A stretch of 64,000 nt of DNA, from positions 62,001 to 126,000 of the forward strand of contig JBAIAA010000699.1 of NCBI GenBank assembly GCA_037893245.1, written 5' to 3'. The stretch is from Crossaster papposus (lineage: Eukaryota; Echinodermata; Asteroidea; Velatida; Solasteridae). The position numbers and the translations under genes were made by a program. The notes below the pieces were generated by a model. That model worked only from the letters and a program-made list of their open reading frames with translations, did not search any database and was not told the DNA's origin. Positions 5,374 through 60,100 of the stretch are shown one piece after another (within the stretch, counting starts at the first letter, position 1; the number at the start of each line of letters is the position of its first letter).

Positions 5374-8300
5374 TTACCAAGCACTGAAGTCTGTTAAATG
5401 GGAAGATAACTTGGATTTCTTCTTCGACGAACTTGCCTCTGATGTGGTTGATGTTTCAGCTGGTCGCTTGGTGGTGCTGGATAGAAAATGAAAAAAACCC
5501 AAAAATAAAATTACCAATTACATGTATAATTTTATATTCTAAATAAAAATAAAACAGGAAAAAAATATTATTGGATTTTTTCTTCTTAAAGGTAGGATAC
5601 ACCATTGGTAATTGCTTGAATTATCATGAATGGGTGGATTTGGGGTGTTGTATTTTATAGTAAATATCGTTTAACTAACCTGTCCGAAGTTTTACAATCA
5701 TAAATGCCGAGAAAAGCACGAAAAACAGCGTTTGTTTTTAACCGGTGCAAGCAGTTATTCTTATGTTATTTATGTTATTTTTCGCGATTGCCGTCCGGCG
5801 AACGCGAATTTAAAAAAAATAAAAAAATTAGAATAATTAAAAGATATTTAGTGCAATCATTTTGCTGGATGCCTAGAATCATTATTTACTTTCAAATGAG
5901 TACAATATTGTTTAATAATTCGGTAGTAAATTTTTTCGAAATCTGCAAATGGTGTGTCCTACCTAAATGTGAATTGGATTCTATGTTTTTTTCAGATAAA
6001 AATGGTTTGACAAGTTATATATTTTCTAAATATGACTATCCTTTCTTTACTTAATCAATACATTATTTGGTCAAAAAACAATTGACCTATTTGACTGTTT
6101 GTACCTTGTCTCTTTGGTGGGCGATGTGACAGTCGAGGGGATATATTTCCCTACACCTTTTCTGTAAGTTGCCGGCCTCTCTTCCGAGGTAGGAGGCACG
6201 CCGACTATTTTGGAGCGGCCGTCTTTCTCGGACTCGATTTCTTCTCTTTTCTTTCTCCTTTCATTGGCAAGCTGGGAGGTGAAACAAAAAATGTTAGGGG
6301 GAGGGAGAAAGATGAAATGGTTGATGTTATGAGTGCGGCGTAAGATCTACAAACTACGTTACATACTACGGGGAGTGTGGCCTAGTGGTAAGGGCTCCTG
6401 ACTCACAATCGGAGGGTCAGAGGTTTGACTCCAGCTACTGGCCATATGTTGTGCCCTTAAGCAAGCCACTTCACCCCAACTTGCCTCTCTCCACCAAGGA
6501 GTATATGTGACCTGGCACCACGAAATGGGTGTAAAGTCGCGAAATTAAAAAGTTGACATTATTACATTTCTAGAAAGAAGACGTCCTAAGCTTTCAAACG
6601 ATGTATTGTGTGTTGCTGTAGCTTATTCCTAGCCGCCGCTATACTCTTTTGAAATAGCTGAAGTCATGCTCCCTTGTTTTGAGAAAACGGAGTTCAAAGT
6701 CTGTGAACCGTGCCAACTATACTACCAATCAGTGCAATTCAGCCACTAAAAAACACACTTTAGAGTTTTAATTGAGCTATAAAATTTCGGAATATGATAA
6801 AGTTTTTTTTGTATGTAAAAACGTTAACAACTCCAAAACGACCTCCCACTTGAAAAATTGACGTTTCGGCCAATTACTCGTTTTGGCAATGTGCGACTTT
6901 CCGCTCATTTCGTGGTGCCTGCATTAGCTAGGAGTAACCAGGGATGGACTCCTGTCCAGGAGGAATATAGAAATAATTTCTTGGTTGTTTCATGCTACTG
7001 AAACCGAGTTTAACACCAGGCTGATGAGCCATATTACTGCCCATGTTGGATTCTGCACCAAATTTTACTACTTACTAATGATTGATTCTGTTGCATTCCG
7101 CATGCGTCATTTCACTTTGTTGCCAGTGGATTCTATAGGAATCTAAAGGTCAGTGTATATACAACTAGTTAACCTTACAGTTAACATTTTTATAAAAGCA
7201 TGTTTTACCTCTTCGTCTACTTCATCGAATGGATTGACAAAGACGACGGCGTCTTCGATGGTGATCGTCTCCTTGGGCTGATCCTTCTTATCCGTCTTGA
7301 TTCTCTCCATGTTAGCGAGGGTGTCCATACCTCCGACTACCCTGAATCATTAAGACAAAAAAAAAAAAAAAAGGAGAGATATTAATCCTAGACGCCGGTA
7401 TTAATTCCTCACTGCATCGGATTATATGCATGGCCACATGCAGCCTTTGTCCAGTACCTGCACTGCACAATAGACCCGAGGGTGCAGCTGCCACAGAGGC
7501 CGTGTTTTACGGCGTAGCACAGCTGACAGCAGCATTCCGGGCAGATTAGCAGGCTTGCGACTATAGCCACTTCCCTGGCGTCAAGGGGTTAAGAGTGATT
7601 CATTAAGACTTAATACACTTTACCTGTTCCTACTGATCAAGAGCCCATCACGTGGGAGGATAAAGCACCAACTGACCTGACCTAACCGACCCGACCCGAC
7701 CTGACCTGACCTGACCCAACCCGACCCGACATGACCCGACCAACAGACAGAGTGAGTGACAGCCAGACAGACACACATCTCGGCTACTTGACAGAAAGAA
7801 CAACATTTCAATTCACTTTCACTTACCTGCCAAAAATGGTGTGCTTCTTGTCCAAATGTTTGCAAGACCGATACGTGATGAAGCTGCATAGATGTGAAAA
7901 AAAGTAAATCATAATCAATAAAGTTGCGAGGGACTGTGATTTTCAAGGTCGTGTCCATACCGCTTGTCTATGGCTATTGTCTAGGTTTTCGCCTATTATA
8001 ATTGTGCATGAGCAGGCTGACAATAGACGTAGCCGTAGCTCTGGAAGCCCGTTTTTCGAAGTTCAGGCACGGCCTTATTCACCTTTAGAGGCATAACTGT
8101 GAAAACACCTCCAAACTCATTCCCTGAAAAGTCGCCCAATGGATGGAGTGAGTGAGTGAGTTTTGGGTTTAACGCCGTGCAGGCATCAGTGGCCATATTC
8201 ACGGCGGGAATGTGTACAAATATAAAAACTTGGAGTCGGAAGGAACAATTATCACATAGGAAAAGAATGAGAACGTTTTAAAGGAATGAAAGAACTATTG

Positions 8301-57100: not shown

Positions 57101-60100
57101 CTATGTGACACTGGCCAGCCATGTCTTTAAATTATCATCCGTTGATTAAAAAATGGCCACGCGATGGGCTCTCGACTAGTGAGAATGGGTAAACTATCTT
57201 AAGTCTTTTATGAATACTAATTATAATCCCTTTGCCACAAATTTTGTATCTTGACTAGCTGAGAGTGAATCACATGGTGAACGCTATTTTTATGTATCTT
57301 GCACAGGCAAGAAGACCATGATTTGTTATGTTAGTTCTTGGTCTGAAAAATTACTATAAGCATAGACAGTTTGAAAGGCTTGAATTTCGTTTTGTTTGTC
57401 GATACAATATCTGAGAGGGTTAGGTGCTGTGTGTGCGATGACGCGAAACCATAGCATTCAGCTAGATTTCAGCTATTTTCCCAAGCTTTAAAAAAAACCC
57501 ATAAAAATCCATTCTGCACATACACTGAAGGTCGTATATGATTCAACTTCAGTAAGATCCAGTATTGTTCAGCCGAAAATATCCCTAACCCCCCTCTACA
57601 CCCAAATGGTTGAACTTTGATTCTTGTGGTATGCCTAACCCAAAATGACAATAAGTTTAGGGACCAAGTAGTCATCCTATAGTATAATATATTACAAATA
57701 GTATAACAAAACATGCATTTCGATTTGGATAGGTTGACAACACATGTACGTCTCTAGAAAAGGTATTGTGGGTTTTATACAATTTTTCATATTTGACTAA
57801 ACAAGATTTTGCTGACATTTTAAGTCCTTTAAATGCGAAAAGTGATAGCTCTAAGGTTATTTACGCACACACGTTTTGAAATTAAAATACGTGTGGATTG
57901 TTGTATGATGATACTGTTATATGTTTCAATTCTGTTCATAATTGATGAAGTATGCAAATTTCTTTTCTGTTTTGGCAGCTGAGATTTAAAATATGTGACC
58001 CTTCATCACAATTGGGCCGTAAACCTGCATTGTGTTATCTAGAGATAAAATTCATGTACAATATCGACATTACAATCGGGAAAAAAACTTTGATGAAAGA
58101 AAAATATGCATGTGCACTGTGGAGACATGGCTTTTTTCTCGTGTACAAAATAGTTAGAAAGTCGAGCACGTTTTTCAAAATGCTCCCATTTTAACCACAA
58201 TTATTTTCCTGGGTTGAAATTTCGACCCAATATACCCTATATTATACCCATACCCAAACACTAACCCACATCCTAACCCTAGTTTTTGAGTTATTTAAGT
58301 AAAATCCAAAAATCTAATTCGTGAAAATTCTAGTGGAGACCTATTCATCTATAGAAATTACCCTTTGGAGACCTTTTCACTTCCATTGTCCCCATTGTGT
58401 TCGCGTCTCCAGAGGGTACCGTATTTCGCACCACATGTATGGCTGACCTTAACTGCAGTAGTGCATGTATGCATTACATGTATGTACACACTTATTACAC
58501 AAGTACTTGCATATTAAGTGCGTAAATTTACGGTAATCGGTAAAGCATATTGACATATATCGTGTAGGATTTATTACATTATCTGAAACACGTGCATATC
58601 CGATTCTCATGTACCAGTACATCTTCCATTATGTGACCCGCTCCATCAAAATCAGGAATAAGTCTCAAAATGACTTTTTGAGATATGCACATGGTGAGAA
58701 AGGGAATTTCATAAGCTTTCTAGTGATACCCATCACAAGTGTGTATCTGTTTAGGTTAACGAGTTATGGTCTGATGAAGATGACAGGTGTATATTTATTT
58801 GCCGAATCCACATTCCGAGAAAAACAGCTATGAAATAAACAAAATTGACCGAAATCATACGGACAGCGCACACAAATCCTCTTCATTTTCATCTTTATTG
58901 ATCGTTTTATACATACAAGACATTAATGACAATAATCTGTGATAACTACGCTTCCTAAAAATACAATGTTCAGAAAATCGACTTGGTCACGATTTTCACC
59001 CATGCTTTCACTTTAACGGCCGATTGCGTAAAACGGCCTCAGCGACTTATTCCTGTTTACGATGGAGCGGGTCACATAGATTCCCGGGCTGTTATATGAT
59101 GATGGTTATGAATAATTCAGTTAGGTTTATGCATGTCATTAGTAGAGGAAAGAGGCCATTAAACCTTTAACGGGGCAATCTACTGAGCTGTGTAGTTGAT
59201 TGATCGTAACGACTATTTGACCAGAAAGAATCACGGAGACCAATTATATGCAGCTTAAAACAGGTTGAATATGCACTGCCGGTGTCATTTTCAAGGTCTC
59301 GTCCGATTTATATTGATTTGTTTTAATATTTGCTGTTCTGTAAATTATAATTATAATCCAGACATATTTTGTTTTATGAGACACAATTTTTGCCTGTGAA
59401 TAATAATCTCAAGCATCCTGTGAAATCATGGCAACAGAGGCATATTTCACAGAGCTGCTAAGCACAAAAATGTTCTCAGCACAACAAAATCTTGCCCAGT
59501 AAAAACAGGTTATCGGCCAAAAATTCCATGTGTTTTTCATGCTAAGCAAAAACCAGCTGATTATCAGTCACAAACAATATACATCACCTGAAAATTTGCT
59601 CTTTAACCCTGTTTTTGCCAAGGAAGAATTTTCATGCTAAGCAAATTTGTGGAATTGGTCCCTGGTCAGCCGACTATCTTTTTACACAAATGTACCAAAT
59701 TTTTTTTTTTTTCAAATACTTTAGTTTGCAATTGGTAATTGTTTGAATTGTCATGAATGGGTGGATCTGGGGGTTGTATTTTATAGTAAATATTGTTTAA
59801 CTGACCTGTCTGAAGTTTTACAATCATGGATGCCGAGAAAAGCAAGAATAACGGATATTGTTAATGTTTTAGATTAATTTCGACCCGCATCGGGCAGTGG
59901 TTCTTATTTTGTTCTTGTTTTTCGCGATCGCTGTCCGGCGATCGTAAAAAAAATTCAATTCAATTTTTCAGAATAATTACTGGATATCTAGGCGTAATCA
60001 TTTTGCTGGATGCCTATAAATCCTTATTTGCTCTCAATAAATAAGACATTTCTTGATAATTTGGTAGTAAATTTTGTTTGATATCTGCAAATGGTGTATC

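What the first reader, a model, noticed from the sequence alone, without database searches (positions are those of the whole stretch)
6503..59078. One bipartite transposon terminus, TGTGACC-N21-AAGTCGC, shared by otherwise unrelated MITE families
H1 (6503), H2/H3 (8522, 11953), H4 (17102), H5/H8 (22303, 58630) and H7 (44961) have different interiors, yet each full end reads TGTGACC, exactly 21 bases, then AAGTCGC or a one- to two-base variant (AAGTCTC, AAGTCGG, AAGTCAA). I counted 21 in the left ends of H1, H2, H4, H5, H7 and in the right ends of H3, H4, H5, H7. Within the spacer only an A-rich run around positions 10-13 (mostly RAAA) is held; the rest differs between families but matches between the two ends of each element. 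Total lengths cluster at about 405-450 bp. This suggests a single transposase that reads two short boxes two helical turns apart, while the spacer is free to drift. It looks like a superfamily definable by spacing rather than similarity, and I do not recognise it.
Basis: partly seen in the sequence, partly recalled or inferred. Interest (0 to 1): 0.82.

Follow-up and report, generated by a model that had tools for sequence, protein, structure and literature searches.

The report
One transposon-end code, many MITE families
Thousands of short parasitic DNA elements in an unnamed animal genome share the same end layout (short motifs at an exact spacing) and the same kind of target site, so they were probably moved by one group of related cut-and-paste enzymes that has not yet been found.

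Summary
TGTGACC-N21-AAGTC occurs 21,912 times in the 1.02-Gb assembly (control 86). The 26 neighbouring spacings (8-20, 22-34) together give 4,020 hits (control 3,128). Ends pair inward, and the elements carry 2-bp W-W duplications (TA > TT, AA >> AT). They are MITEs; 35 sampled elements form 8 interior clusters.

Two parts of the reading change. First, the families are not wholly unrelated: beyond the TIR there are two end types, A and B, shared across clusters, and a third box (GAGATA/GAGTTAT) near position 49. Second, the spacer is not simply free to drift: the two ends of one element agree at 18.2 of 21 spacer bases, ends of different clusters at 9.9. That suggests family-specific recognition or end homogenisation rather than one indifferent transposase.

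Best explanation: several related cut-and-paste families with a conserved end code that target A|WW|T with a 2-nt stagger. No autonomous member was found in 27 PHIS/ISL2EU-type and 6 Tc1-type stretches, a small part of the candidates. The superfamily stays open: Tc1/mariner fails on strict TA, ISL2EU on AT and GG. Rated a new variant of a known kind.

The parts
6506..6922 (-). H1, MITE, TGGCACC type; type A end on the right, right terminus degenerate
   Evidence: exact left end; right end lacks TGTGACC; interior cluster 0; end types
8524..8959 (+). H2, MITE, GGCTG type, duplication AA/AA, right box CATGACC
9899..10266 (.).
   Evidence: same end family elsewhere in the genome
11955..12401 (-). 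H3, MITE, GGCTC type, duplication TT/TT; inner box ATGTC on the left
   Evidence: holds the empty site of the insertion seen in L012
17106..17528 (+). H4, MITE, TGTTCC type, duplication TA/TA, both 33-bp ends identical
   Evidence: 96.7% identical to L029 1501-1925
22307..22750 (-). H5, MITE, CGCTCCATC type, duplication TA/TA
   Evidence: 95.7% identical to H8
44963..45364 (+). H7, MITE, CCACC type, flanks AA/TA (unequal)
58632..59076 (-). H8, MITE, CGCTCCATC type, duplication TA/TA

Best explanation
These are non-autonomous cut-and-paste DNA transposons (MITEs) of several related families, moved by a group of related transposases.

Shown: end code TGTGACC (1-7), R-A-A-A (17-20), AAGTCG (29-34) and often GAGATA/GAGTTAT (48-50); two end types A and B; 2-bp W-W duplications inside A|WW|T; inward pairing; high copy number; sampled copies up to 97% identical.

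Inferred: (i) a DDE-type transposase joins to the target with a 2-nt stagger, each strand choosing A|T over A|A independently (p about 0.82); (ii) it grips each end through several DNA contacts in phase, with the A-run as a minor-groove contact between boxes; (iii) the spacer is read by family-specific transposase variants, or the two ends of an element are homogenised, which is why it matches within but not between families; (iv) the families descend from fewer ancestors with asymmetric ends whose interiors were replaced or diverged.

The autonomous partner and its superfamily are not identified.
For: Spacing peak. Inward, spacer-matched pairing. Duplications in 36 rows: TA 23, TT 5, AA 4, unequal 4, AT 0; base before is A in 32 and base after is T in 34. 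20,824 of 21,912 ends follow W-W; 74 printed rows give TA 50, TT 11, AA 11, AT 2, against 50.3, 21.4 (TT+AA), 2.3 under independence. Empty sites with a single TT (L012) or TA (L067). Third box in 31 of 70 ends, 28 at 48-50, 1.2 expected; end types beat 100 shuffles (323 against at most 157). Spacer 18.2 within against 9.9 between. Copy identities.
Against: No transposase with these ends was found, so mechanism steps (i)-(iii) rest on anatomy. 4 of 36 rows have unequal flanks. The 74 rows are not independent: several are the two ends of one element, and only W-W flanks were asked for. Third-box counts include several copies per family. Of 8 queries with spanning hits, only L012 and L067 give clean empty sites; L070 differs at the junction bases, L068 aligns with gaps, L014, L016 and L074 hit mainly themselves.
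Confidence: 0.6

Rival explanations
1. One single transposase reads two short boxes and ignores the spacer, so the spacer drifts freely.
For: Rigid spacing and constant boxes across 8 interior clusters.
Against: Spacers match within elements (18.2 of 21) and not between clusters (9.9 of 21); end types and a third box show there is more signal. End homogenisation could rescue this view.
Confidence: 0.15
2. A relaxed branch of Tc1/mariner: paired-like double-HTH transposase, TA as main target with TT and AA tolerated.
For: TA is the commonest duplication; box, A-run, box fits a two-domain reader (recalled); Himar1 and Sleeping Beauty end strings that I recalled contain AAGTC (one search shows only that papers print the strings).
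Against: 9 of the 32 rows with equal flanks are TT or AA. Six Tc1-like stretches, of 150 scored places, hold no such end; four have other long TIRs. Transposase_1 found nothing, though that search rang nowhere in its controls either. DDE_3 was swamped by contig C8.
Confidence: 0.2
3. A branch of the PHIS group near ISL2EU whose target preference has turned from A|AT|T to A|TA|T.
For: Same 2-bp stagger with A before and T after (PMC4482050 passages); the genome is rich in PF13359 transposases, many near a YqaJ gene by eye.
Against: Ends start TG, not GG; AT is rare (0 of 36 rows, 2 of 74 flanks). 27 stretches hold no exact end, but 24 of them are only 1.6-2.2 kb and 150 of 1,818 candidates were scored.
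Confidence: 0.2
4. Chance co-occurrence of two short words.
For: None beyond the shortness of the words.
Against: 21,912 against 86 in the control; inward pairing; only single hits in viral contigs.
Confidence: 0.01

Closest known systems
ISL2EU (PHIS superfamily)
   Same: 2-bp duplication with A before and T after, AT-rich target (PMC4482050, passages); transposase and YqaJ genes abound in this genome
   Different: ISL2EU duplicates AT and its ends usually start GG; here TA, TT, AA and TGTGACC. No stretch read has these ends
Tc1/mariner (IS630 group)
   Same: TA is the main target; TIR of about 30 bp with an inner and an outer box fits a two-domain reader (recalled)
   Different: Tc1/mariner generally duplicates TA (passage in PMC10045372); here 9 of 32 equal-flank rows are TT or AA. 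Six Tc1-like stretches have no such ends
MITEs of other superfamilies (Stowaway, Tourist, TTAA types)
   Same: Short, non-coding, inverted ends, homogeneous length, high copy number
   Different: End sequence and W-W duplication; shared A and B end types across unlike interiors
RAG/Transib recombination signals
   Same: Two short boxes at a fixed spacing of about two helical turns (recalled)
   Different: Other box sequences and 5-bp duplications (recalled); an analogy of layout only

Membership tests
MITE (non-autonomous DNA transposon) | Inverted ends in inward pairs | tested here: met
   21 inward (18 spacer-matched), 1 everted, 4 direct among exact ends
MITE (non-autonomous DNA transposon) | Short, homogeneous length | tested here: met
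   26 of 36 rows at 362-452 bp; nine longer, one shorter
MITE (non-autonomous DNA transposon) | Target-site duplication | tested here: met
   32 of 36 rows have equal 2-bp flanks; two clean empty-site cases
MITE (non-autonomous DNA transposon) | High copy number | tested here: met
   21,912 exact ends
MITE (non-autonomous DNA transposon) | Autonomous partner with the same ends | tested here: inconclusive
   not found in 33 stretches; most candidates unread
Tc1/mariner | Strict TA duplication | tested here: not met
   TT 5 and AA 4 of 36 rows; TT 11, AA 11, AT 2 of 74 flanks
Tc1/mariner | Tc1/mariner transposase between these ends | tested here: inconclusive
   six stretches negative of 150 scored places
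ISL2EU | AT duplication in A|AT|T | tested here: not met
   AT/AT 0 of 36; AT 2 of 74; A and T surround is met (32 and 34 of 36)
ISL2EU | TIR usually starting GG | tested here: not met
   TIR starts TGTGACC
ISL2EU | PF13359 transposase and YqaJ between these ends | tested here: inconclusive
   27 stretches negative, 24 of them 1.6-2.2 kb
PIF/Harbinger | 3-bp TWA duplication | tested here: not met
   2-bp W-W duplication
piggyBac / Kolobok | TTAA duplication | tested here: not met
   2-bp W-W duplication

The most novel reading that the evidence does not exclude
The ends belong to a transposon group not yet described: asymmetric three-box ends at rigid spacings and a target A|WW|T in which each strand is chosen independently (A|T over A|A), between Tc1/mariner (TA) and ISL2EU (A|AT|T) in target choice, with a transposase outside the known groups.
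Probability: 0.2. Interest if true: 0.65.

Novelty: new variant of a known kind. Interest (0 to 1): 0.45.

Why it matters
One spacing outnumbers the 26 neighbouring ones together by about five to one, and the average neighbour by about 140 to one, so the ends act as a footprint of the missing transposase. More than twenty thousand natural ends let its contacts, its strand-wise target preference and its family-specific part be read from sequence alone. That makes it testable how related transposases share a core signal while keeping families apart. The practical lesson is to look past the shared boxes: end types and a third box link families with unlike interiors.

Tried and rejected
Search for the autonomous partner. 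Pfam families in the assembly: DDE_3 (of the 150 places listed, all but two on C1027 lie on contig C8, which looks bacterial), DDE_Tnp_4 (150 of 1,818 candidates scored), Transposase_1 (nothing, and its controls did not ring), DDE_1 (40 places, no stretch read), HTH_Tnp_Tc3_2 (150 of 302 scored), YqaJ (150 of 200 scored). Stretches read: L061-L063, L093-L112 and L113-L116 (27; 23 chosen by a PF13359 place, 4 by a YqaJ place alone) and L075-L080 (6 Tc1-like). None holds an exact TGTGACC-N21-AAGTC. Near-matches at one change in L063, L099 and L104, and at two or three in some others, I judged by eye not to be ends. L098, L108 and L110 hold TGTGACC without the inner box.

Eleven ends of rarer spacer types (L064-L074): most proved to be short elements with a partner; L069 and L072 had none within about 2.4 kb. 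L069 shares only its first 58-62 bp with a MITE family; its frames were read by eye, not scanned.

Viral contigs: 12 single hits, taken as chance.

Shifted boundary (duplication AT, element starting ATGTG): rejected by hand because it breaks the TT and AA rows.

Literature (PMC open-licence library only). One search listed 2 papers and one search listed 7 that hold end strings; by title none concerns these elements. Searches found no paper. Searches gave listings without such a family. PMC2872659 was opened because it held TGTG; it concerns TTAA MITEs (outline, first quarter of the text, passages). PMC4482050, PMC9179366, PMC10045372 and PMC9587614: passages only. Papers listed: listing only. 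Repbase and Dfam could not be consulted.
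Full report
Observation. With up to 2 mismatches there are 16 hits in the window, 12 of them element ends (11 without mismatch), against 4.43 expected. The window lies in a 1.02-Gb assembly of 1,841 contigs (G000:C699:62001-126000). 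There the exact pattern occurs 10,969 + 10,943 times, against 43 + 43 for the pattern read backwards. Spacings 8-20 together give 954 + 950 hits (control 906 + 768), and spacings 22-34 give 1,075 + 1,041 (control 741 + 713). The average neighbouring spacing thus holds about 155 hits and spacing 21 holds 21,912. With AAGTCGC as inner box and any spacing 8-35, 93 of the first 100 listed hits have 21. In 252 kb held, exact ends 150-1300 bp apart are inward in 21 cases (18 spacer-matched), everted in 1 and direct in 4; at up to 2 mismatches 48 (31), 11 and 18. Box 1 has a rarer form: TGTGATG-N21-AAGTC occurs 117 + 127 times (control 21 + 21), only partly as an end family with the same A-run; the rest of the printed hits are other repeats.

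Boundaries and target. 36 end pairs were taken from the window and loci, at up to 3 mismatches, at least 24 of 33 bases alike and 150-1300 bp long. One row (L070 from 55) joins ends of two elements and shares its right flank with the next row. Flanking dinucleotides are TA/TA 23, TT/TT 5, AA/AA 4, unequal 4, AT/AT 0. The base before is A in 32 and the base after is T in 34. Genome-wide, 20,824 of 21,912 exact ends follow two W bases (control 34). The 74 of these printed with letters read TA 50, TT 11, AA 11, AT 2 by my count of the listing. If each strand chose T over A independently (p 0.824) one expects 50.3, 21.4 (TT plus AA) and 2.3. The rows are not independent: several are the two ends of one element. 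Joined flanks (36 queries, 24 spanning hits from 8 of them) gave two clean empty-site cases. L012 sits in a copy of the GGCTC element, and copies in L066, L074, L018 and H3 keep one TT; L067 against L068 keeps one TA. L070 aligns without a gap but with other bases at the junction, L068 aligns only with gaps, and L014, L016 and L074 hit mainly themselves. The element therefore starts at TGTGACC and duplicates 2 bp in A|WW|T. The strand-wise preference is a model from counts, not an assay.

Anatomy. 35 elements fall into 8 interior clusters, one of them a single element. The GGCTC and CGCTCCAGG types share their interior at about 70%, so they are one cluster. 65 distinct exact ends, grouped by spacer into six groups, have consensuses that all hold AAA at 18-20, R at 17, C at 16 and G at 34 besides the boxes; single types depart, for instance A at 16 in the GGCTC type. 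Beyond the inner box GAGATA or GAGTTAT occurs in 31 of 70 ends, 28 of them at 48-50, against 1.2 expected (several copies of a family are counted). Most elements have two unlike ends. Type A runs AAGTCGCAC.., often followed by GGCC and TCAAA. Type B runs AAGTCG.AAAA.., A-rich, then often TTGAGATAT. Among ten representatives, 26 of 43 B-B comparisons and 7 of 43 A-A comparisons between clusters exceed z 3, against 1 of 86 A-B, so the likeness is strong for B and weak for A. I had set orientations by eye; therefore maximised over all orientations for eight representatives: score 323, against a maximum of 157 in 100 shuffles treated alike. Interiors beyond 110 bp show no such likeness (2 of 43 above z 3).

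Spacer. The two ends of an element agree at 18.2 of 21 spacer bases (16 elements that I picked from the 36 rows); ends of different clusters agree at 9.9 (220 comparisons, highest 16). A spacer free to drift would not stay matched within an element while diverging this far between families. Either each family has its own transposase variant that reads the spacer, or the two ends of an element are homogenised. I favour the first. This is inference.

Age. The closest sampled copies are 95-97% identical (TGTTCC and CGCTCCATC types); the other pairs printed run down to 74%. Movement was therefore not confined to one old burst.

The missing transposase. The assembly holds many PF13359 transposases, and by eye many lie within a few kb of a YqaJ gene, the ISL2EU arrangement. 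It also holds Tc1-like ones. 27 stretches of the former kind and 6 of the latter were read; none holds an exact end. Of the 27, 24 are only 1.6-2.2 kb long, so an end outside the stretch could be missed, and most candidates were never read. Absence of an autonomous member is not shown.

Comparison. ISL2EU shares the 2-bp stagger and the A..T surround but duplicates AT and usually starts GG (PMC4482050, passages). Tc1/mariner shares TA as the main target, but there it is the general rule (PMC10045372, passage). PIF/Harbinger, piggyBac and Kolobok fail on duplication length. Himar1 and Sleeping Beauty end strings that I recalled contain AAGTC; one search shows only that papers print those strings. 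No paper on such elements was found (open PMC library only). Repbase and Dfam could not be consulted, so a named family may exist.

Verdict. A large, real complex of related MITE families with an unusually rigid, asymmetric end code (two boxes, an A-run and often a third box) and an A|WW|T target. 'Unrelated families' and 'spacer free to drift' do not. The superfamily remains open.

Noticed in passing
G000 contig C8 (about 5.3 Mb), loci L032-L060: C8 looks like a bacterial chromosome inside the animal assembly (G+C 0.46 in two loci against 0.39 for L001-L030; compact ORFs, one ErpA-like by eye). 148 of the 150 listed DDE_3 places lie on it, mostly near-identical IS630-like copies; it may be a symbiont or contaminant.
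   Followed up: partly
L007 and L009 (C1 near 104.6 kb and 206.6 kb): Ends of the TTCTCC type lead inward, after about 90 bp shared with L071 and L072, into a tandem array of about 200-bp units, so some members seem to carry satellite arrays.
   Followed up: partly
G000 genome-wide: Unusual wealth of PF13359 transposases and YqaJ genes side by side, in many distinct groups, mostly convergent but divergent in the 387-aa group (by eye).
   Followed up: partly
L076-L079: Tc1-like elements with long perfect inverted repeats of other sequence, up to about 240 bp.
   Followed up: no
window 48139-49869 (-), 1848-2285 (-), 21849-22232 (+): An adenosine-deaminase (ADAR-type) domain ORF of 577 aa, a lipocalin ORF, and a myosin-head-like ORF below Pfam's cut-off.
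   Followed up: no
window 10732-11343 and beyond, 23331-24014, 35499-35686: Tandem repeats with units of 12 bp, 22-23 bp and 30 bp; the last lies in an open frame at 35277-35720.
   Followed up: no
window 12786-43785 (eight copies) and 5135-61417 (about nine copies): Two other dispersed repeats of roughly 250 bp, occurring many times in the window and not of the present kind.
   Followed up: no
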